This document shows positions 35,387 through 48,100 of a DNA stretch of 64,000 nt, piece by piece. The stretch's first letter is position 1; every line of letters starts with the position of its first letter. This DNA comes from Aspergillus flavus. Taxonomy: Eukaryota > Ascomycota > Eurotiomycetes > Eurotiales > Aspergillaceae. The notes below the pieces were generated by a model. It saw only the letters and a program-made list of their open reading frames with translations, searched no databases and had not been told where the DNA came from. The DNA lies in the NCBI RefSeq assembly GCF_009017415.1, contig NC_092408.1:4216001-4280000 (forward strand). The letters are read 5' to 3'. The position numbers were made by a program, and so were the translations under genes.

Positions 35387-37078
35387 TCATGAGATCAATA
35401 TGTTCGCCTCTTCAAGATTCCGCCTAGCGGTTTCAGGGAGTCGCATCGAAACCCACAATAAGCCCAGTATTGTAACCGCCGCAAAGAGCCAGAATGTTCC
35501 CTCCGGCCGCAGTCCATCCTCTAGCAACATGGACGGAACAGCCTAAGCTTTCGTCAGCCATCTAGATGCGGTTCCGATGTTGAAGAACTGTACCTTAGAT
35601 AAGCCATATCGATTGGCGAAATGGAAGCACATGAGTACACTGGACCCTACTGTCCTTACGGATAGGGGGAAAATCTCCGCGTTTATGAGATACTGAATCG
35701 AGTTCCATCCAAGGGCCCAGCCCACCCCCGTGAGATAGAGACAGATGATGGCAACAATGACTGCATCGTGCTCTGCTTTTGAGTGGATGGGATGGGTGGA
35801 TGGCAGTGCCACAGTTAGATAGATGGCAATGTAAAGCATAGCGATAAATTGAATGATGATTCCTGTAATCAGAGGGCGTTTCCGCCCTGTGTAATCAATC
35901 AGAAATACCGTGCAGATAAGCGATGCGACAAACTTGACGGCGCCTAAAATGGCGGTGCACAGGAGCTTCTGGGACTGGCCTGTCTCCCCGAGAAGTGAGA
36001 AGAGCTTCGGGGCATAAGCTGCATGATCGTTGGTTATTGTTCATTTCTAACTCTCGGGACTTAACACTCACTGGTAACGGAAGTGGCACCGGACCACTGG
36101 CTTAGGAGCTGAGTGATCGCTAAAAATGCCAATCTCGATGGGTTAGATTTGTCTGTGACAAGTTGCTTTAGAGCCCTCCCCAAGCACTGGATGCTTGTCC
36201 CTGCTGGTGTGTCTCCCAGTTGATTAAGAATACCTTCGAATTCCCTCTGAATGCGTGGGTCGTGTATTGGTAAATTCCACAACCGACTTAAAGCCCGGGT
36301 ACCCTCGGCAAAGCGTCCGGCTTTGCATAGATATCGGGGACTCTCCTCACAGGAAAATGATGAAAGCAGAAGAATGCCAGCAACCATTATCTGGACAGAC
36401 TGTGGGATTATCCATTGCTTTGAGCTGTTGTTGGAGATGTGCATGGTCGTTCCCCAGCTTGAGAAATACTAGAGTGATCACGTTAGTCACCGTGGTCTCC
36501 GTCGCAGGTGGTAGGTGGATGCTAACTCCTATCATGATTCCCATGTACTCAGACGTAGCAAATGTGCCGACCATGAGTCCGCGGAGCGTCGGTGTAGCCA
36601 CCTCAGAGAGATAGATGGGTACGACGACCCCGGCTTGTCCAATCCCTAACCCCATGATGAAGCGACCAGCATAGACCTGACCAATACTCCCCGCAGCTGT
36701 AATAACAATAATTACTCCAGCTGCCCACATAACACACAGCTGCCTCATTGTCCACAGTATTCCGACGTGCTCACACATAATGAAGGCAAATATTGCTCCA
36801 GGAATACTTCCGATATGAACCATGGAGGTTATGTTGGAGAGCCGGTTGGCTTTCTCCGATGCACTGAGGTCGGCATCCTCAAGGTGGAACTCATGAATAA
36901 AGGACGGCTGAGCAACTGTGGTCGAGATGAGGCCCTCATCCAGCCCTGGATATTGTCAAACAGGTCTCTTTAGAGAACAACTATGTAGCCTACCTCGAGC
37001 CATCCCAAGGAGTCCGAAGGAAAAAACCGCACATAACAGCTTCGCCGTCAATGTTCGAAGATAACCGATCTGCTTCAT
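35387..37078 (-). CDS. MFS sugar transporter (fungal hexose/quinate-type)
   Basis: Exons 36994-37078, 36527-36945, 36072-36468, 35594-36018 and 35387-35542 give an intact 493-residue protein with about 12 hydrophobic segments. Sugar-porter marks are GRFIMGLGIGQAGVVVPIYLSEVATPTLRG after the fourth helix, IDYTGRKRP in the second half, and GWALGWNSIQYLINAEIFPLSVR before the last helices. The family motif PETxG/RxxEE appears as LPETARRRLEEAN. The large central loop (about residues 215-265) is typical. It should move a sugar or related small molecule across the plasma membrane with protons. The first half of the N-terminal domain (MKQIGYLRTLTAKLL) is short. Substrate not predictable. Confidence 0.9.
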
Positions 37079-37301
37079 CTTGACGGTGATCGAACAATTT
37101 CGTTCTTTCTACACTTCCCCTACGCCAAGTTTATAAGCCAAGGCAACGCTAAAGCTTTCATAATAATTTGCGCAGGAGAAGTGGAGCCAAGGGGGGCCCG
37201 TGTCAGCCCTACAGTAGGGCTGAGTGGGAATGCTGTCAGGGGCATCAGATATGATAGGACAGCCCCTTGGCATTAAATATCGCTAACTAATAAATTATTT
37301 A

Positions 37302-38132
37302 TCATTGGTCCAGCTCGTCATCCTCCAGGTTCTCAGTCGATTGCCCCCGCCAAATCAGCCAGGCAACAGCGATAAACGCCTTGCACAAAACTGCCGTCCA
37401 AAATGCCCCCATTAGCCCAACCGGGCTCTTGGCCCACAAACCCCCCAGCATCGTCCCAAACAGGAGACACACCACTGCCCCGCCACGTCGCCTGTTTTCC
37501 ACTCCATGTAACATCGACAAAGGAGGAAGCTCCGGACTGGAGAATAAGTCGCAGTACACACTCGTCAACACCACGCTAGTCAGACCATTGAACTGCAGGG
37601 CACGGCTCGTCACTGCCTGGCCACTGCTCTGAAAAGCGACCAGCATTAAGGGAACAATCACTTTCCAGGTTAGAGGGGAATCCCTAGAAGTTTGATGGGT
37701 AGTCACAATCGTAGCAGCCGCCGCTACGCAGAGCATCTGGATGGTAAAGGAAAGGCACAGCACCCAGCGCCTGCGGGGAGAGAACCGTCGGTGAAAAGAG
37801 GCAAAGCTGAAGGAGCCCACACAAAAGCTGGCGATCGAGGTTAATGCTCTGAGCCAGCGAGTGCTCTCGTCGACTCCCATGAGGCCGAGGCCTAGATAGA
37901 CGGTGTTGCCGGTCTGCATGCTCACGAATGAGCCCCAGACAAAGACGGCGGAGCTGTCGAGTAGCCCAGTGATCACGTAGCAAAACAGCAGAATAAGGTC
38001 CCCATGGTTAGGATTAATGTCCGAGGTGAGATGGCTGATAAGCCTGTGGCGACAATACTTCTGTAGTGGAGTACTAGAATCGTCATCGTTTCCTAGTAGC
38101 CGGTCGGTTTCGCGTGGAGTGTGGGAAGTCAT
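37302..38132 (-). CDS. DUF1275 (YoaK-like) integral membrane protein
   Basis: Single exon, 276 residues, with about six to seven hydrophobic segments. Diagnostic DUF1275 stretches are CYVITGLLDSSAVFVWGSFVSMQTGNTVYLGLG and FQSSGQAVTSRALQFNGLTSVVLTSVYCDL. In fungi these proteins are common and uncharacterised; bacterial relatives are equally vague. The hydrophilic N-terminus (about 45 residues) contains ETDRLLGN, a dileucine-like motif of the kind that sorts proteins to vacuole or endosome; that is inference. It lies beside, and on the same strand as, the MFS transporter. Confidence 0.9.
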   Translation of the reverse strand: MTSHTPRETDRLLGNDDDSSTPLQKYCRHRLISHLTSDINPNHGDLILLFCYVITGLLDSSAVFVWGSFVSMQTGNTVYLGLGLMGVDESTRWLRALTSIASFCVGSFSFASFHRRFSPRRRWVLCLSFTIQMLCVAAAATIVTTHQTSRDSPLTWKVIVPLMLVAFQSSGQAVTSRALQFNGLTSVVLTSVYCDLFSSPELPPLSMLHGVENRRRGGAVVCLLFGTMLGGLWAKSPVGLMGAFWTAVLCKAFIAVAWLIWRGQSTENLEDDELDQ

Positions 38133-39058
38133 CGAGAATCAGACAGGGGGATCTTTGGTGGAAAACCAGCACAATTGACAACAAGGTATTAATTATCCTG
38201 CGCATCCGGGTTTCCGATTTTGTTCGCTTGGTTGTGGACCCGGTGGAAATTATCAGGAACGCGTCACTGGACTAAACAAGCTTTCTCCTCGGAGACTCCA
38301 TATGAAATTAAATCAGGCAGCCACTATTGGAGCCCTCAGGCACTCTATTCAATTTAAAGTCACATGACTATACCCACCCTAATGTGGTCAGTGGTCACGT
38401 GTGAATGCTAGAGATTAGCATTTGCTCTCAACTTCCTAATAATACATGAGTGGTCCGAATCTGTTTGTGTTTATTTTACATCTTCTACCTAGTGTTTTAC
38501 GGTTTTACCTTGCTGTCTAATAACGAGAATATAGGCGTTGGTCTTCTGTGCTGCATAAGACTCCCGTTGGACGACGTTGGAACATAAAATATATAGCGAA
38601 ACAACAATCATAGTTGCTATGAAGTTGGGGCTGCCCTTCAGAGAGCGTAGGCGTCTCGATATCCGTAGAACTGCCTCAAGCTGTAATAGTAATTATGTCT
38701 TTAATAAAGGAAAGGCTTCAATACGTCGTGGCTTATCGATTTTGGCTCGGCCATTAGCTGCAACTCGGAACCACAACTTATTTCATATATAAAAAAAAGC
38801 AGTCAAGTCGTAAGTTGGGTTGCAAGGCTAGAATGGCCACAGAAAATATGATTCGCTATTTATGCCCTGTGGCTAGCCAAGGCTTCGTCCTCCGCTAGCC
38901 TTGCGCTGATCCTACAGAGAAGATGATGTGTACACTGAGCCCCACCTCAAATCCCAATCACTCTCAAGATGTGTGCTTTGCTTTAGCAAAAGATACAACT
39001 TTCTATAATATTACTTGCACACGCAGCTCTAATCCCTTCCTTGAAACTGTGATCGAAA
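38133..39058. other. Intergenic region with a foldback sequence
   Basis: No gene seen. It contains a nested inverted repeat (38822-38904) and presumably the promoter of the PNP gene. Confidence 0.5.
38822..38904. repeat. Nested inverted repeat (foldback)
   Basis: Outer arms gcaaggctag (38822-38831) and ctagccttgc (38895-38904) are perfectly complementary. Inner arms ggccacag (38835-38842) and ctgtggct (38867-38874) pair at 7 of 8 positions. A small MITE remnant, a hairpin or a regulatory palindrome are all possible. Confidence 0.6.
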
Positions 39059-40213
39059 ATGGGAATTACAAAACCCTCTCATGATGACTATACGATTGCC
39101 TGGATTTGCGCGTTACCGCTGGAGATGGCGGCTGCCAAGGCGATGCTTGAGAAGACGCATGAATCCCTTCCCCAGCCACAAGCGGACCAGAACTCCTATT
39201 TTTTTGGAGAAATGAGCGGCCATAATATTGTCCTTGTCTGTTTGCCCTCTGGAGTGTATGGAACCACATCTGCAGCCACAGTTCTCTCCCAAATGCTGTC
39301 AACATTCTCGTCTATCAAAGTTGGTTTGATGGTGGGGATTGGTGGGGGTGTACCCAGGGAAAGTGTTGATATTCGCCTTGGGGATGTAGTGGTTAGCATG
39401 CCGTCCGGCTCCTCAGGTGGTGTGATACAGTATGATTACGGCAAGGCATTGTCTGATGGGTGCTTTCAACATACCGGTTCGCTCAACAGCCCCCCTCAGG
39501 TACTGTTGACTGCCGTCTCTCAGATGCGCAGCAATCACATGATTGAAGGTTCTGAGATTTATGCCACTATCACAAATACCCTGGACAGTAATCGGTACAT
39601 GGGAGAACATTTCTCGCCCCCTGATAGAGACTTGCTGTTCAATGCGACATATCAACATCCAAAGCACTGTCTGGATTGCTCGAACTGCGACCAGAGCCAG
39701 GTTGTGACACGTATTCCACGAAAGTCTCACGAGCCTCAAATTCATTATGGCTTGATTGCATCTGGTAATCAGGTAATAAAAGACGCTAAAACACGGGACT
39801 ACCTTGCTCAAAAGCTGGGAACTCTCTGCTTTGAGATGGAAGCTGCTGGTCTCATGAACCAGCTACCTTGCTTGGTGATCCGCGGTATTTGTGACTACTG
39901 TGATTCACACAAGCAGAAGGACTGGCAAGGTTATTCAGCACTGAGTGCATCTGCATATGCTAAGGTACTCTTAACGGTTGTTCCTATCAGCAGCAGCAAT
40001 AGAACTGGCGCAAGAATTCATATGCAATCAAACAAAGAGGCAAAGCGCAGTGAGGCACCCAGTTTCACATTTAATAGCTACGGGTCTGGACAGCAGTTCA
40101 ATGCTACTGGGAACGCTCAGAACAACAACACAGGAAATGGCAATCAATTCCTCGGTAGCTTTGCTGGGCCTGTGTATTTCGGCCACCCTCCGACCGCATC
40201 TAAGGATACCTAG
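39059..40213 (+). CDS. Stand-alone PNP_UDP (nucleoside phosphorylase/nucleosidase) protein with C-terminal amyloid-like motif
   Basis: Single exon, 384 residues. Residues about 9-312 are the PNP_UDP domain found at the N-terminus of many fungal NACHT/NB-ARC receptors: DYTIAWICALPLEMAAAKAML, PSGVYGTTSAATV, GLMVGIGGGVP, IRLGDVVVS, QIHYGLIASGNQVIKD, CFEMEAAGLMN and RGICDYCDSHKQKDWQGY. The MEAAG and ICDY segments are where this fold binds ribose and carries the catalytic Asp. Here no receptor is fused. Instead residues 336-375 are N/G/Q-rich (FNSYGSGQQFNATG, QNNNTGNGNQFLG, then GPVYFG) and match the start of the NACHT protein encoded 850 bp downstream. Likely a cell-death effector that cleaves a nucleoside or nucleotide; substrate unknown. 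Confidence 0.9.
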   Translation: MGITKPSHDDYTIAWICALPLEMAAAKAMLEKTHESLPQPQADQNSYFFGEMSGHNIVLVCLPSGVYGTTSAATVLSQMLSTFSSIKVGLMVGIGGGVPRESVDIRLGDVVVSMPSGSSGGVIQYDYGKALSDGCFQHTGSLNSPPQVLLTAVSQMRSNHMIEGSEIYATITNTLDSNRYMGEHFSPPDRDLLFNATYQHPKHCLDCSNCDQSQVVTRIPRKSHEPQIHYGLIASGNQVIKDAKTRDYLAQKLGTLCFEMEAAGLMNQLPCLVIRGICDYCDSHKQKDWQGYSALSASAYAKVLLTVVPISSSNRTGARIHMQSNKEAKRSEAPSFTFNSYGSGQQFNATGNAQNNNTGNGNQFLGSFAGPVYFGHPPTASKDT

Positions 40214-40522
40214 GCAGATGACAAGCAATATCCTATCTGGCACTATATGTGGCGCTTTACTTTACTGTATCTTTCTTTCTTAGACACGGCAACGTTGTAA
40301 AAATAATGATCCGTAGAACTACTGATTCAGCAGTGGTATCATGAATTAGTTAAGTGCACTTCTAATTAAAACATTCAGGATAGCGTCGTCTTTAGTTCAA
40401 AAAGTCATCCCACTAATACCCACTAATCTACCTTCTTAGTCCTCGAAAACTACACGTGCCCCAGCCTTTGAAGGAGATAGAAGGGGTAACTTAAGAATCC
40501 TCAATGTTTACTGCCAAACAGA

Positions 40523-40753
40523 ATGGGTGATGTAGATTGCGGAGAAACGGGGGATACGAGAATCATTGTGTATAGGAAGTCAGCCGCACGATCTTTTATG
40601 CACGGTTTACTCCGTATTACAGCCATAACGGGCATATATTACCTGCGCAACAAAATGATTGAATATTATTGGAGGCCTCGCCTTTCCGAAGCCAGCTACC
40701 CGAAATCTGACTGGTCACATGCCGCATCGATCACCGGCGACACTAGGAAATAA
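40523..40753 (+). CDS. Small unknown ORF between the PNP and NACHT genes
   Basis: ATG to stop, 76 residues, with one moderately hydrophobic stretch (FMHGLLRITAITGIYYL, about 26-42) between charged ends. It has no family signature. It lies in the same direction between two functionally linked genes, which is the only reason to list it. It could be chance. Confidence 0.2.
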   Translation: MGDVDCGETGDTRIIVYRKSAARSFMHGLLRITAITGIYYLRNKMIEYYWRPRLSEASYPKSDWSHAASITGDTRK

Positions 40754-41059
40754 ATAGAAAGGTGCTGCTGCTGCTGACATAGCAAGTAGACCCATGCATG
40801 GTGTACTTTCTTTTCCATTTATCCATCCTTCTTTCTTTTCTCTCTCTCCGCTTTAATTACCCGTAGCCCGAGTGTCCACGCTAGCTGGCCTCCTTGAGCC
40901 TTTTCACAGCCCGCTCGCCAACGTCACTGGTGCTTAGCAAGCAACATATGTCTTCAAAGGCATTTACTCGGCTCCTGATCGATATTAAAATTGGATGAGA
41001 GCCTGATAGAGATCTGCAAGTGTAGCATCTCGACTGCATCACACTGTATCACACTCAGG

Positions 41060-43927
41060 ATGTCATTCACCAACGACCACGGCAGCGGGGATATGTTCAA
41101 CTCCCATATGAGTACCCAGAACAACAATACAGGAAATGGCAACCAATTCTCCGGATCCACCTTTCATGGGCCTGTGAACTTCCCTCAGAATACCCAGAAT
41201 GAGCGTCCTCTTCAATCACGACAGATGGATGTCCTGAAGAGACTGAATGTATCCAAATATCGAGATCAGAAAGATCGAAACCCTGTTCGAGTACGAGGGA
41301 CGTGTGACTGGTTTGTTACTCATCCAACTTTCAGAGCCTGGCAAGAGACCCAGACGTCGCAGATGCTCTGGGTCACTGCAGATCCCGGATGTGGAAAATC
41401 TGTGTTGGCAAAGTATTTGGCAGATTCTGTTCTCACAAGTCACGCTGGTCGAATAGTCGGATATTTCTTCTTTAAGGACGACTTCGAGGATCAAAGGAGC
41501 ATCGTAAAGGCCTTATGCTGCATTCTTCACCAGCTCTTTTACCAGAATCGCGATCTGCTTACTGCGCATATTCTTGAACAATTTGAGATGGACGAAAGGA
41601 TTGTTGATTCTTTTGGTAGTCTTTGGAACGTCCTCATCAGCGCTGCGAAGCAAACGGATACTACAGAGATCATTTGTCTGCTAGACGCCTTCGATGAATG
41701 CGAACCGGATGGACGGTCCCAACTCACTGTAGCACTCGAAAGGCTTTACACTGATGAAAGTCGGCATAATTTCAATCTAAAGTTTCTTATTACTAGTCGC
41801 CTCTATGGTGACATCAGGCAAGGATTTCAGCCTATGCAGATGGAAGGGCAATCATTGATTCATCTCAGCGGGGAAGGTACTGAAGAAATGGAGGATATCT
41901 CTCGTGAGATCAAAACTTTCATCAAAGCAAGGGTTGAAACAATTGGCGCCCGACTAAAGCTCACGGAAGAGGAAGAGTCTATCCTACTCAAGAGCGTCAC
42001 ACGTGTTCCCAACACCACATATCTCTGGGTCTACCTTACTCTTAATCTAATTGAGAGTATTAAGGATATCGATAAAACAAGAATACTCGACGCTACGTCT
42101 GACCTCCCCAAGACCGTGGACGATGCCTATGAACGAATCTTATCTCGAAGCGAAGACTGCCAAAAGGCCAGAAAATTACTTCATATCGTGGTCGGTGCGA
42201 CACGGCCCTTAACGCTCCAAGAAATGAACCTCGCTTTAATCTTAAGTGGAAAACACCAGTCATATCGGGAGCTTGAACTCAGATCAGAAGACCGTATTCG
42301 TGAAAATATCCGGGACCTCTGCGGACTGTTTATTACCGTTGTAGAAGGTAGAATTTACCTCCTTCATCAAACGGCGAGAGAGTTTTTGATTGAAAAGAAT
42401 AAGCCCCCCCTCCAAGGGAATACATCCGACAGCAAACTTCCCGTGCTTCATCACGCTGCCTGGCGATTCCTATTCGGAGATACCCCAAAAGGGAACGTTG
42501 ACAGCATTCCAAGCCCCACATGGAAGCATTCATTAACATTGCAAGAGTCTCATCACATTATTGCAACAATCTGTATCCAGTACCTGCTGCTCTCCGATTT
42601 TCGGAAGACCTTGCCTCGGGGAATAGACATAGGCGAGCTTACCAACACCTATATCTTTCTAGACTACTCTACCAAATCTTGGGCCACTCATTTTTTGAAA
42701 GCGAATGATAAGACTGACAATATGAAACAATCCCTTGTGACACTCTGCGATCTGATTGAAGATTGCTGTCCAGCTTGGTTCCAAGTTTATTGGGCGTCAT
42801 TGGGCACAGAATTCCCGACTGGCTTCAACAGTCTTATGATTGGAGCCTATTTTGGACTAGTACCGGTAGTGCAACACTGGATTATGAAGAAAACTGATTT
42901 TGACGCTAAGGACGAGGTATATGGCCGTTCGGCACTATCTTGGGCGTCTGGAAACGGCCATACTGCTGTCATGGAGCTCTTGATAAAAAGATCCTACAGA
43001 ACCTGGTGGAAGATGGCCCAGGTTGATTTGCGAGACAGGCATAATAGGACACCTCTTTCATGGGCTATCCTGAACGGTCAAGTGGAGGCAGTCGGTCTGT
43101 TACTCAAAGCTGGAGCTGAAATTGACTTGGAAGATGATATCGGAGGGACGCCGTTCGAATATGCTATCTGCAGTGGGAATAATGGGGTATGGAATATCGT
43201 GAAGAAGAAAGGATCCCAGAATCATCATCTGCCTATCGACAGGATTCAAACCAAACTGCTCATTTCAGCTGCCAGAAAGGGCAATGAAGCGATAGTGAGA
43301 CACCTGCTTGAGAATAATGCAGATATAGAGTCGATAGATGAAAACGGCCAAACACCACTTTCCCGGGCAGCAGAGAATGGTCATGAGGCGGTGGTGAGAC
43401 TTCTGCTCGAGAACAAGGCAGATATAGAGTCGATGGATAGACTTAGCCGAACACCACTTTTCTGGGCGGTGGAGAATTGCCATAAGGCAGTGGTGAGACT
43501 TCTGCTTGAGAATAAGGCAGATATAGAGTCGAAGGATATATTTAGCCGAACACCACTTTTCTGGGCGGCTATAAAGGGTCATGAGGCGGCGGTGACACTC
43601 CTTCTCGAGAACAAGGCAGATATAGAGTCAAGGGATAATAAGTATAGGCGAACACCACTTTGCGAGGCGGCAAAGAATGGCCATGAGGCAGTGGTAAGAC
43701 TTCTGCTCGAGAACAAGGCAGATGTAGAGTCGACAGATGATATATTTGGCCGAACACCACTTGCCTGGGCAGCGGAGAATGGCCATGAGGCAGTGGTAAG
43801 ACTCCTGCTCAAGAATAATGCAGATATACAGTCGAAGGATATATTTAGCCGAACACCACTTTCATATGCGGAGATCAGTGGTAATAAAGCAGTAGTGAGG
43901 CTAGTTTCTAGGTACAAGAGCCCTTGA
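41060..43927 (+). CDS. NACHT-ankyrin NLR-like receptor with N-terminal amyloid-like motif
   Basis: Single exon, 955 residues from the ATG at 41060. Residues 8-41 (HGSGDMFNSHM, QNNNTGNGNQFSG, then GPVNF) repeat the C-terminal motif of the PNP protein upstream. The NACHT NTPase follows: CDWFVTHPTFRAW, Walker A ADPGCGKS (107-114), Walker B ICLLDAFDE (205-213) and FLITSRLYGDI as sensor-like strand, ending in a helical STAND linker. From about residue 610 there are roughly ten ankyrin repeats. The last six are almost identical 33/34-residue units (TPLxWAxxNGHEAVVRLLLENKADIES), so the ligand-sensing end is a recently amplified array. In fungi such proteins are nonself/heterokaryon-incompatibility receptors. 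Receptor partner of the PNP effector is inferred. Confidence 0.92.
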   Translation: MSFTNDHGSGDMFNSHMSTQNNNTGNGNQFSGSTFHGPVNFPQNTQNERPLQSRQMDVLKRLNVSKYRDQKDRNPVRVRGTCDWFVTHPTFRAWQETQTSQMLWVTADPGCGKSVLAKYLADSVLTSHAGRIVGYFFFKDDFEDQRSIVKALCCILHQLFYQNRDLLTAHILEQFEMDERIVDSFGSLWNVLISAAKQTDTTEIICLLDAFDECEPDGRSQLTVALERLYTDESRHNFNLKFLITSRLYGDIRQGFQPMQMEGQSLIHLSGEGTEEMEDISREIKTFIKARVETIGARLKLTEEEESILLKSVTRVPNTTYLWVYLTLNLIESIKDIDKTRILDATSDLPKTVDDAYERILSRSEDCQKARKLLHIVVGATRPLTLQEMNLALILSGKHQSYRELELRSEDRIRENIRDLCGLFITVVEGRIYLLHQTAREFLIEKNKPPLQGNTSDSKLPVLHHAAWRFLFGDTPKGNVDSIPSPTWKHSLTLQESHHIIATICIQYLLLSDFRKTLPRGIDIGELTNTYIFLDYSTKSWATHFLKANDKTDNMKQSLVTLCDLIEDCCPAWFQVYWASLGTEFPTGFNSLMIGAYFGLVPVVQHWIMKKTDFDAKDEVYGRSALSWASGNGHTAVMELLIKRSYRTWWKMAQVDLRDRHNRTPLSWAILNGQVEAVGLLLKAGAEIDLEDDIGGTPFEYAICSGNNGVWNIVKKKGSQNHHLPIDRIQTKLLISAARKGNEAIVRHLLENNADIESIDENGQTPLSRAAENGHEAVVRLLLENKADIESMDRLSRTPLFWAVENCHKAVVRLLLENKADIESKDIFSRTPLFWAAIKGHEAAVTLLLENKADIESRDNKYRRTPLCEAAKNGHEAVVRLLLENKADVESTDDIFGRTPLAWAAENGHEAVVRLLLKNNADIQSKDIFSRTPLSYAEISGNKAVVRLVSRYKSP
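43316..43920 (+). repeat. High-identity ankyrin-repeat array in DNA (about 99/102-bp units)
   Basis: Within the NACHT gene, about six consecutive units share long identical blocks such as cttctgctcgagaacaaggc and cgaacaccactt. Some units are 99 bp and some 102 bp (one extra codon). The arrangement suggests recent unequal exchange or gene conversion. Confidence 0.9.
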
Positions 43928-45132
43928 TGACAGAATTTCGGGATATATTGACATACGCTGTTCTTAAGACTCGACTCCCACTTGATGTCCTGGCCCGTAT
44001 CCTTGAGATATCCGCAATGCCATATGCCTTGCGCTAGATTGACTTTCTCCGATACGTGACGTGGCAACAGGCTCCAATAGTTTAGTCCGCTTTTATCGTT
44101 TACATCTGCAATATACACTGCACCTGCCCTTCTGACGGCGAAGCACCGAATACTCAAGAAGATATCTGCACAATATCTACGCGTCATGAACAAGTCCCTC
44201 AGAAAGGATATAGGTGACCTAATGAGACTGAGACGAAGTATCAGGATACCAGCAGTTGGCTTAACCATCAATCGCTCTTGGAGGACATATAGTACTTATG
44301 TTGCTACTCGGCATACCATCTGGTCCAAGGTAAGGATGCCGATAGTCATAAAGTGCTTAGTTTCCTATAAAAGCATTTGCTTCATTGACTGGAAGCAATG
44401 GACATAATGGGAATGATTTCGCTGACCACCGATATTTTGGATACCGTAACTATAGCAATGAAGGCGAGCCTTTGAGTTGGCGTACTGCTATATAGTTAAG
44501 AACAGAGAAAAGGCCAAAACCTAAAAGTAAGACACGAAGCTCCGATGATCTCTATACGATGCAAAACAATTTGCTTTGAGAAACATGGCAGTATCTGGTA
44601 TTGCCCCATTGCACCTTTACTTTTCTAGAAGTGCCTTTTCGCTGGTGGATTAATAATCGGGATAATATTTCGATGCGATATTCTCAGGATGACAGTTGCA
44701 TCGCTGATAAGGAAGTAACTATGGGATACAGAGTTTTATCTCTGCCCCGGTCAGGTCCGTTCAAACTGCGAGATGCCAAAACAGAAGTAAATGTAACTCA
44801 TAGCAGGGACATAGCTATGGTATTTGTATGAAATAACCAGGGGAGACGATGATTCGGTAAAGTCGGTCAATCTTGATCCGCATTACCGGAGCGAGTACTG
44901 ATAATGAAGAGGGGCTACTGATTGCTGAGCGATTATCCATCAATAATATGTATGGATTTAAGGGAAGAGCAGTCCATATCACTGGCTACATACAACTGAA
45001 GTAGTCGACTTCGTCGATGCTGCCTAGGTCCTATCCCTGATACATATTGCAAACGAGTAAGTCTGAGCATTCCGTCATATTCTTTTTGTACAAGTTCTAG
45101 ATCATTTCTATTATAGTAGTGTCAATATCGGC
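43928..45132. other. Gene-free stretch
   Basis: About 1.2 kb after the receptor gene. A 76-codon open frame (44601-44831) has no signature. Long antisense frames here are shadows of the ankyrin repeats. Confidence 0.5.
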
Positions 45133-48100
45133 TTAGTATAAGCCAGGCCCAAGGCCAAGAGGCCCAGCAGATGCCCCGTTAGTATGAAACGAAAGTAGCT
45201 GAGCGGCAATTGGCGTGCTAGCCGAACATCCTCCCTTGGCCCAACTACTTGGCTGACACTCCAGATCTGCTGGACAATCTTTGTCGTTATTGCAGAAAGC
45301 CCCTGCCTGGTCGGTCTTAAGCCAGCACCATGGATCTCCTGCTTTCCACTCTTCCTTGACGGGCTGAGAGGTCTCTGGGTTGCATTTGCTCCAACATACT
45401 CCCTGTATACCATCCATTATGGCGCAACCACCATAATCCGGCTCTGGTATTGTACATCCACCCTGCGCCCAAATACTTGGCTGACATTGGAATGTGGTTG
45501 GGCAGTCTGTCTGATGGTTGCAAAAGGCACCTACTCCGTCATGTTCAAGCCAACACCATGGATCGCCCTTTTTCCACCCACCGCCCACCGCCTTGCCGGT
45601 AATAGGGTCACACTTATTCCAGCATACACCTTGTTTCTTCATCAGATCACAACCATCCGCAGAGGTAGGCGCTGGCTTTGCCGAGCTGGTGGTAGTAGTA
45701 GTGGTAGACGTGGTCGTCGAGGAGGTAGTGGAGTGGGATCCTGAGTCGGAGGTTGGCTTGGCCGTTGGGAATACTGGCACGGCAACCGTGCCTGAATAGC
45801 CTGGGATGATGACCATAGGCACATTGTCTATTGTCGTGCTAACCTGCTCGTTGCCATCCACGTTGGGCACCCGGATAGTCGTGCCATCGACATTGATGGT
45901 TCCTCCCGTTACCGTATATGGATCGCCCCCGACGACGGCAATCTCCGAGATACTGGTAGTGATGATAGAGGTCGTTCGTGGGGATAACCATTAGCCCCCT
46001 AGTCGCCATTGGGATCGATCTTGACACCCGTCGGACAATACTTGCCCGTTGTCGTGGCCGAGTTAGTCACTGAGCATCCGGTAAAAGTGGCCGTCTTTGT
46101 GGTGGAGCAGCTGGTGTCAGAGCAAGTGACCCAGTAGTTGGTGGCTGTCTGCGCGGTGCTCTCCTCGCTGGAACTGCTACCGCAGTTCGAGGTACAGCGA
46201 TGTCCGCAGCCGGGGCTATTGATATCTGTACAGGAGGGGAACGGGGCGTGGCTGGTAAAAGTGGTTGTTGGAAGGAATCGGTTTGGGGGGCAGTCGATTG
46301 AGAACAAATCGAAGAGTTTGAAGCGTGGTGCTTTGGGGATCGGAGGAAACGAGGGCAGTGGGGGCACGGGTATATCCTCCGGTTTCGAGGTAGGCTGGGG
46401 TACCGGAGACCAATAGAAGCCTCCAGCCTGGACCCATACTGGAACAACCGTCGTTGAGGTAGCGGAGGTAGCCGGTGAGGTCTGGACAGGGAGTGTCGTG
46501 GTCGTGATTGTAGAAGTCGCGAGATCTGAGAGAGACGGGAATTGTGCCTCAGAATAGGTATATGTCTGGCCATTTGTGTAGTATTCGGTTGTTCCAAGAG
46601 ACGTGGGTGTCTGCGTGACCCCACCACCTGGTGTAATTGACTGGACAGAGACTGGAGGTAGGAAGATTGTGGTGGAAGTACCGTCCGCCTCCAATGTGAC
46701 GGGCTCCGGAGAATAGCTGGGAGTCAGATAGAAGGAGAAGGGTCTCGTTTGACCGGGGCCGACAGGCATATTAAAATAGCTCATAGCCGTGGTAGTAACT
46801 ACTCGCAGAATAATCAGCAATTGGTCAGGCTAAAGACATTGGGGCATAGGGCTTGGTCATACTGGGGCTGGGGTAAAGGGTCTTGATAGTGGTGGTTCCC
46901 AAGGTAATGGACGTAGCCACCGGAGATAAATAGATTGTCGTTGGGTTATTCAGGAGCAGGTCTGGCATTATCAGAGTACAAGGCGGAATACATCCGACAA
47001 CAGGGGAAGGTTTCAGGAAAATGCCTGGATCTACATAGACATCACCGGAGCCCTTGTCGTCACCCTCTCCACCAGACGTAGAGACGGCACATGCGCCTTC
47101 GGGACAGTATTCATACTTGCAGGTGAACTCGCAAAGGGGTCCATAGACAGTTTCATCCATTCCTGGACCCGCTTCACCAACCTTATCTGTTGCTTCAGGA
47201 AGCGTGTGAAGAGCACCTTGGGCAGTACATGTACACGCATTGATAGGACAGAACCCCAAATTACACGCGAAGTCACAAAGACCGGCGAGATTACCTTCCC
47301 CTGTACCGCCGATGCATGCTGGAGGTAAAAAGGGTGAGACAGTGGGCGTGGACAACGGTGCAGAGACGGTGCTGCATGCGGTGTCGGGGCAGAATCCATG
47401 AGGGCAGTCAAACGCGCAGAGACCGCTATAGCTGGCATCGAGTCCTGCTTGAGGATAGCCCATGGGTCCGGTCGCATTGGGTGTTTCTCGAGGCTCCCCT
47501 TGAAGCTGGCAGTAACAGGCACCGAGAGGACAGTAGCCATATTTGCAACCGAACTCACATAGACCAGCAAAGTTGTTGGCTCCGGTGCCATTTATACATT
47601 TCTGATTGAAAAGATTCGTTTCCGGCTTCGCATTGACACTTTCACTAGCACTGGCGCTGCCGACCCAGGCATTCCAATTCGTCAGCCCCTTGACGCAATT
47701 CGTGGATATGGAGCTGCCGTGGACCTGGGCTATCTGCTTTCCAGAGCGCGATAACGTGACGACGACGTCTCCCAGGCTAGAACCGAAAGGAACACTGCCA
47801 TGGTAGATACCGACACCTCCGTCCGGTTGCCAAGTCCAGCTGGCTTGTTGGGATACTCCACCAACACTGACCGTAACGGTTGCCGGAGCACTAAGGAGAG
47901 CAGAGAAGAAGATGTGGTCCTGTACGATCTCTGTTGGATGAAACTCAATTTGAAGCTGGCTCGCAGTGTTACCAGAGGTTCCTCCTGAGCTACAAGCGGA
48001 CGCAGGTTGCGGTCAATGCCACACAGTCAAGCCCTCCTTATCGATTGTGGCTTTTCCATACTTATAGGTGTCGATCAAAAAAGGAAGAAAGAGCCGCCAG

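What the first reader, a model, noticed from the sequence alone, without database searches (positions are those of the whole stretch)
39059..43927. PNP_UDP effector and NACHT-ankyrin receptor linked by a shared N/G/Q motif
The C-terminus of the PNP_UDP protein (residues 336-375) and the N-terminus of the NACHT protein (8-41) share one pattern: GSG..FN, then an identical QNNNTGNGNQF, then F.GPV.F. At the DNA level the core differs by only about two bases in 30. In fungi, effector/receptor pairs such as HET-S/NWD2 signal by templating a short amyloid motif from receptor to effector. Here the effector would be a nucleosidase/phosphorylase, which usually is fused to the receptor. Bacterial PNP effectors deplete nucleotides during infection. 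The pair therefore looks like a two-gene, amyloid-gated, nucleotide-cleaving cell-death system.
Basis: partly seen in the sequence, partly recalled or inferred. Interest (0 to 1): 0.88.

Follow-up and report, generated by a model that had tools for sequence, protein, structure and literature searches.

The report
Sigma amyloid-motif enzyme and receptor pair
Two neighbouring Aspergillus flavus genes, a predicted nucleotide-cleaving enzyme and an immune-type receptor, carry the same short prion-like motif, an arrangement already described in 2012 in the close relative Aspergillus oryzae and thought to let the receptor switch the enzyme on.

Summary
The PNP_UDP protein (39059-40213, 384 aa) ends, and the NACHT-ankyrin protein (41060-43927, 955 aa) begins, with the same motif. 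It is Pfam NACHT_sigma (PF17106), above the curated cut-off on both sides: the sigma amyloid-signalling motif first seen at the sesA/sesB/het-eN locus of Nectria haematococca. A six-frame search of the 37.7-Mb genome, which the closest named proteins mark as Aspergillus flavus, reported no other sigma match. A confident model gives the effector an MTA/SAH-nucleosidase fold with the catalytic residues kept and a disordered motif tail.

Daskalov et al. 2012 (PMC3321046, passages) reported adjacent UDP-phosphorylase/STAND gene pairs sharing sigma-type extensions in A. oryzae, A. terreus and Magnaporthe, with the same templating model; Wojciechowski et al. 2022 (PMC9815663, passages) associate sigma with both pore-forming and PNP_UDP effectors. 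This is very probably the A. flavus counterpart of the A. oryzae pair, though the published accessions could not be checked. Amyloid formation, templating, enzyme substrate and cell death are untested for this pair. Verdict: already known, modest interest.

The parts
39059..40213 (+). Effector gene: single-exon ORF of 384 aa, PNP_UDP_1 (MTA/SAH-nucleosidase-like) domain at residues about 10-312 plus C-terminal sigma motif
40067..40183 (+). Sigma motif of the effector (residues 337-375)
   Evidence: PF17106 NACHT_sigma, 50.0 bits against cut-off 27.6; mean column conservation 0.794 against 0.369 for linker 309-334 over 12 sequences, 11 of them chosen because they carry the motif; pLDDT blocks 32-47 over residues 321-384, i.e. 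predicted disordered
40118..40150 (+). Identical core QNNNTGNGNQF, effector copy
   Evidence: 11 of 11 residues and 31 of 33 nt identical to the receptor copy
41060..43927 (+). Receptor gene: sigma motif, NPHP3_N/NACHT-type NTPase, winged helix, ankyrin repeats (955 aa as an open frame; the named NRRL3357 protein, 967 aa, agrees at 310 of 316 residues over 640-955 and ends in another tail, encoded up to about 44037)
   Evidence: Pfam PF17106, PF24883, PF22939, PF12796; P0121 = G4B84_008823, A. flavus NRRL3357, 100% identical over residues 1-260; tail compared
41063..41182 (+). Sigma motif of the receptor (residues 2-41)
   Evidence: PF17106, 59.5 bits; whole-genome scan
41117..41149 (+). Identical core QNNNTGNGNQF, receptor copy
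43295..43863 (+). Ankyrin-repeat array, 99-bp unit, 5.7 copies, 80% matches
   Evidence: Tandem Repeats Finder; the ankyrin part and residues 450-640 differ most between named A. flavus receptors

Best explanation
This is a sigma-type amyloid-signalling gene pair. The ankyrin repeats of the NACHT receptor sense an unknown non-self cue; the receptor oligomerises; its clustered N-terminal sigma motifs adopt a cross-beta fold; that fold templates the same fold in the disordered C-terminal sigma tail of the neighbouring PNP_UDP protein; the assembled nucleosidase becomes active and depletes a nucleotide or nucleoside (ATP or an adenosine derivative), stopping growth or killing the cell. Shown here: both motifs and their family, adjacency, presence of the motif in homologues of both partners, a nucleosidase fold with catalytic residues kept, predicted disorder of the tail, variability of the ankyrin part between named A. 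flavus proteins. Inferred: oligomerisation, amyloid folding, templating, activation, substrate, cell death.
Against: Nothing here measures amyloid, templating, activity or death. The 11 homologues behind the conservation figure were picked because they carry the sigma profile, which favours motif conservation; only 12 of the 120 listed PNP homologues carry it. The first A and the B sub-motif of the receptor are degenerate (GSGDMFN, MSTQNNNT). The A. oryzae receptor and one A. flavus receptor end the motif in FPGTVNF instead of HGPVNF, and I could not see whether the partner PNP follows. The codon-level signal is weak and post hoc. A. fumigatus hetD, a stand-alone PNP_UDP protein, is said to act in isolation, without a divergent neighbour (passage). 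[quoted passage not shown]
Confidence: 0.65

Rival explanations
1. The sigma motif does couple receptor and effector, but the enzyme is an MTA/SAH-type nucleosidase whose product or substrate is a signal (for example acting on bacterial quorum-sensing precursors), not a nucleotide-depleting killer.
For: The closest solved folds are MTA/SAH nucleosidases and futalosine hydrolase, at 12-23% identity. Dyrka et al. 2014 predict this substrate class for P. anserina NLR PNP_UDP domains and suggest manipulation of bacterial signalling (PMC4986451, passage).
Against: Fold similarity does not fix the substrate; reviews describe PNP-family immune effectors as ATP-cleaving (passages), and A. fumigatus hetA/hetD link PNP_UDP genes to incompatibility (passage).
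Confidence: 0.2
2. The shared N/G/Q-rich block is an ordinary disordered docking tag: the two proteins bind through it without an amyloid fold.
For: No biophysics on this pair; the tail is simply disordered in the model.
Against: The motif belongs to a family treated as amyloid signalling motifs: a Nectria sigma peptide was used as a bona fide control (PMC8086366, passages), and unpublished fibril formation by a het-eN peptide is mentioned (PMC3321046, passage).
Confidence: 0.1
3. Decayed or fused relic: the two genes are really one PNP-NACHT-ankyrin gene, as in the A. minisclerotigenes model P0131, and the sigma motifs are leftover sequence.
For: P0131 joins a PNP domain to the NACHT-ankyrin part without sigma; fused PNP-NACHT or PNP-NB-ARC frames occur elsewhere in this genome (L004, L005, L022, L024).
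Against: The bridge peptide of P0131 matches sequence between the two window ORFs (40542-40613, with a stop upstream and a stop downstream in that frame), so it looks like a gene-model merger; both window ORFs are intact, and separate sigma-PNP proteins recur (12 of 120 listed hits).
Confidence: 0.04
4. Chance similarity of two low-complexity N/G/Q-rich segments.
For: Composition is biased.
Against: 0 of 5000 composition-preserving shuffles reach the observed score, in each of two versions; curated profile matches on both sides, reported nowhere else in the genome scan.
Confidence: 0.01

Closest known systems
UDP-phosphorylase/STAND pairs with sigma-type extensions in Aspergillus oryzae, A. 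terreus and Magnaporthe (Daskalov et al. 2012, PMC3321046; passages seen)
   Same: Stand-alone PNP_UDP gene next to a STAND receptor without its own effector domain; sigma motif at the effector C-terminus and receptor N-terminus; same templating model proposed. An A. oryzae receptor (P0127) keeps 36 of 40 sigma and 165 of 181 NACHT residues of the window receptor
   Different: No difference seen in the passages; accessions of the published pair (Table S1) were not available, so identity of the locus is inferred
sesA/sesB/het-eN sigma locus of Nectria haematococca (passages in PMC3321046 and PMC5485727)
   Same: Sigma motif shared by effectors and an ankyrin NACHT receptor
   Different: Effectors there are SesA and a SesB lipase; here a PNP_UDP nucleosidase; no further sigma match was reported in this genome
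PUASM pairs of PNP_UDP and NACHT or NACHT-WD40 receptors (Wojciechowski et al. 2022, PMC9815663; passages seen)
   Same: PNP_UDP effector with a C-terminal amyloid motif shared with the receptor encoded next to it; peptide aggregation measured there
   Different: Different motif (FxGxGxQxxGxGxF); the window pair carries sigma, which the same paper associates with both pore-forming and enzymatic (PNP_UDP) effectors
HET-S/NWD2 of Podospora anserina (passages in PMC5485727)
   Same: Two adjacent genes; receptor templates effector
   Different: HeLo pore-forming effector and HET-s beta-solenoid motif
Detocs and other bacterial ATP-cleaving PNP effectors (passage in PMC11249213; the primary paper was not held)
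   Same: PNP-superfamily effector that depletes a nucleotide on infection
   Different: Different control (two-component system); substrate of the window protein unknown

Membership tests
Sigma (NACHT_sigma, PF17106) amyloid-signalling motif | Profile match above the curated cut-off | tested here: met
   50.0 and 59.5 bits against 27.6
Sigma (NACHT_sigma, PF17106) amyloid-signalling motif | Three sub-motifs of type A (GxGxQFNxx) and B (GGTQNINT) | tested here: met
   Read by eye: effector GSGQQFNAT/GNAQNNNT/GNGNQF (ABA); receptor GSGDMFNSH/MSTQNNNT/GNGNQF, where the first A and the B are imperfect
Sigma (NACHT_sigma, PF17106) amyloid-signalling motif | Effector C-terminus and receptor N-terminus, adjacent genes | tested here: met
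   Residues 337-375 of 384 and 2-41 of 955; ORFs 846 bp apart, same strand
Sigma (NACHT_sigma, PF17106) amyloid-signalling motif | Motif present in orthologous pairs | tested here: met
   12 of 120 listed PNP hits and, by my count of the listing, 18 of 120 receptor hits carry PF17106; A. parasiticus has both partners with it. Outside A. flavus both partners could be matched by name in this one species only, so co-evolution within pairs was not tested
Sigma (NACHT_sigma, PF17106) amyloid-signalling motif | Forms amyloid and seeds its partner | not testable with these tools
   Needs peptides or cells
PNP_UDP (MTAN-like) nucleosidase | Fold | tested here: met
PNP_UDP (MTAN-like) nucleosidase | Catalytic Glu, Glu and Asp kept | tested here: met
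   E22, E261 and D279 align with the matching residues of Vibrio nucleosidase and are 90% or more, 90% or more and invariant in 109 sequences; that the second Glu of EME is catalytic is recalled
PNP_UDP (MTAN-like) nucleosidase | Hydrolyses ATP or another nucleotide | not testable with these tools
   Substrate cannot be read from the fold
Fungal NLR (STAND) | NACHT-type NTPase plus superstructure-forming repeats | tested here: met
   NPHP3_N 134.2 bits, winged helix 35.6 bits, ankyrin repeats; the NACHT profile itself stays below its cut-off (19.3 against 26.7)
HET-s/HRAM motif | HET-S Pfam profiles or HRAM pattern | tested here: inconclusive
   No HET-S profile is listed for either protein at E up to 1, but HMMER's filters may drop short weak matches; HRAM patterns were not scanned

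The most novel reading that the evidence does not exclude
The pair is an amyloid-switched nucleotide-depleting suicide system: receptor-nucleated sigma fibrils organise the nucleosidase into an active filament that cleaves ATP or a related adenine nucleotide. The receptor and effector motifs are kept matched at the DNA level by exchange between the two neighbouring genes while the ankyrin sensor diversifies between strains.
Probability: 0.3. Interest if true: 0.55.

Novelty: already known. Interest (0 to 1): 0.3.

Why it matters
If the mechanism holds, a prion-like fold would gate a metabolic enzyme rather than a membrane pore, joining fungal amyloid signalling to the nucleotide-depletion strategy of bacterial antiphage defence. 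The pair is a clean test case: one sigma receptor and one sigma effector reported in a whole-genome scan, with a related receptor in A. oryzae, a domesticated and easily handled fungus. The idea itself has been in print since 2012; what I did not see in the passages read is the experiment.

Tried and rejected

A second shared-motif pair elsewhere in the genome was looked for around another PNP_UDP fragment at G000:C4:3386363 (L028). Its C-terminal stretch and a nearby N-terminal-like ORF do not match: alignment score 23, reached by 1785 of 5000 shuffles; Pfam listed only PNP_UDP_1 for the first and nothing for the second.

A true gene fusion in A. minisclerotigenes (P0131) was considered and set aside as a probable gene-model merger.

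Co-evolution of the motifs within gene clusters, reported by Daskalov 2012, could not be tested: outside A. flavus both partners were matched by name in A. parasiticus only, and I found no collection of fungal DNA among the tools. The codon test is the only substitute and is weak.

The conservation figures rest on window + 11 homologues chosen for carrying PF17106: 11 of the 12 such hits, P0074 being dropped as a 228-aa fragment. The choice favours conservation of the motif.

A first structure prediction with those 12 sequences was poor (mean pLDDT 44.7) and was not used. The second, with 109 sequences (window plus 108 of the 120 hits listed), gave 82.0. Twelve listed hits were left out of it: the fragment P0074, and eleven dropped without a fixed rule to shorten the list.

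For the receptor comparison I used the window and the 10 best of 120 listed hits. Five further sigma receptors were aligned: P0132, P0133 and P0171 keep QNNNTGSGNQF, P0139 has QYNNTGNGNQF, P0142 has QYNNTDNGNQ and no recognisable end of the motif in that stretch.

Of 25 PNP_UDP matches reported in the genome, 8 frames were scanned for other domains; 4 of the 8 carry a NACHT- or NB-ARC-type domain. The remaining ones were not scanned.

A motif-only protein search returned 4 proteins of 7 candidates and missed most sigma-PNP proteins found, so it is insensitive. One hit, P0241, is a SesA protein with sigma. It shares a longest-contig length of 40389 with the sigma-PNP P0016, which hints at a PNP/SesA sigma locus; this was not verified.
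Full report
Source. The window is stretch 4216001-4280000 of contig 5 of a 37,736,778-base genome in 8 contigs. Its receptor is 100% identical over residues 1-260 to hypothetical protein G4B84_008823 of Aspergillus flavus NRRL3357 (P0121), and the effector is 97% identical to an A. flavus protein (P0001).

Observation. The two ORFs and the shared motif are as described. The motif is a curated family, NACHT_sigma PF17106, present on both sides above its cut-off and reported nowhere else in the genome (a lower bound that ignores introns). Shuffled sequences of the same composition never reach the observed score (0 of 5000 in each of two versions). At the DNA level 31 of 33 core positions agree; over all 27 identical residues 16 use the same codon against 10.3-10.4 expected (P about 0.015-0.018 in three variants of a post hoc test), a weak hint of exchange or recent common origin.

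Anatomy of the receptor. Sigma motif, NPHP3_N/NACHT-type NTPase, winged helix, ankyrin repeats, the repeats forming a 99-bp array of 5.7 copies. Against the window, three other proteins named A. flavus (P0123, P0124, P0128, presumably alleles) keep 177, 179 and 178 of 181 residues over 80-260, but 156 of 191, 155 of 191 and 137 of 163 over 450-640 and 226 of 286, 222 of 299 and 130 of 157 in the ankyrin part. This pattern is expected of a variable sensor. Their sigma motifs keep 36, 36 and 38 of 40 residues.

Spread. Of the 120 best PNP homologues listed (7996 scored), 12 carry PF17106; the named ones are from A. flavus, A. parasiticus, A. puulaauensis, A. versicolor, A. calidoustus, A. heterothallicus, Talaromyces verruculosus and Paecilomyces lecythidis. 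In A. parasiticus both partners are recorded under nearby locus tags with the same longest-contig length. The window receptor and the 10 best receptor hits keep QNNNTG[NS]GNQF.

Literature. Daskalov et al. 2012 (PMC3321046; passages) screened for stand-alone UDP-phosphorylase genes next to STAND genes, found them in A. oryzae, A. [quoted passage not shown] Wojciechowski et al. 2022 (PMC9815663; passages) recovered sigma as NLR28 and state that sigma and PP motifs associate with both pore-forming and enzymatic PNP_UDP effectors; they measured aggregation for a different PNP-associated motif, PUASM. [quoted passage not shown] passage). In A. fumigatus, hetA and hetD incompatibility genes encode PNP_UDP proteins, hetD apparently acting without a divergent neighbour (PMC11138114; passages). 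Reviews point to ATP cleavage by immune PNP effectors (PMC10197012, PMC12881547, PMC11249213; passages); the primary paper was not held. In the passages seen I found no biochemical or genetic test of a sigma-PNP pair (literature searches); the library holds open-licence papers only.

Judgement. The finding is a correct, independent rediscovery of a described arrangement, very probably the A. flavus counterpart of the published A. oryzae pair. Mechanistic steps beyond sequence and fold remain inference.

Noticed in passing
P0131 (Aspergillus minisclerotigenes) against window 40542-40613: A deposited 947-aa model fuses the PNP and NACHT-ankyrin parts and lacks both sigma motifs; its bridge peptide matches sequence between the two window ORFs, so it is probably a gene-model merger. 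Such mergers would hide sigma pairs in proteome surveys.
   Followed up: partly
P0016 and P0241: A sigma-bearing PNP protein (370 aa) and a sigma-bearing SesA protein (218 aa) both list a longest contig of 40389 bases from the same source, hinting at a locus with two different sigma effectors.
   Followed up: partly
window 43880-44040: The receptor's 3' end differs between models: the open frame stops at 43927, while the NRRL3357 protein ends in a tail encoded up to about 44037 that another A. flavus protein (P0124) carries in a variant form.
   Followed up: partly
G000:C7:2971595-2971951 and 2981816-2982172 (L021, L022): Two PNP_UDP matches about 10 kb apart with the same score; one frame runs on into a NACHT-type domain that starts at residue 371, the other stops at 366 aa.
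   Followed up: no
L028 4058-4849 and 7725-9441: A PNP_UDP fragment upstream of several short frames that read like broken ankyrin repeats (by eye, not scanned); no shared terminal motif could be shown (1785 of 5000 shuffles score as high).
   Followed up: partly
alignment A3, window PNP residues C207 and C210: A CxxC pair of the fungal PNP domain is invariant in 109 sequences, possibly a metal site; whether bacterial relatives have it was not checked.
   Followed up: no
window 35543-38138 and 45133-48012: Neighbours look ordinary: two frames of a sugar transporter, a DUF1275 protein, a frame with the end of a glycosyl hydrolase 71 domain and one frame without a Pfam match; no sigma motif listed for them.
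   Followed up: partly
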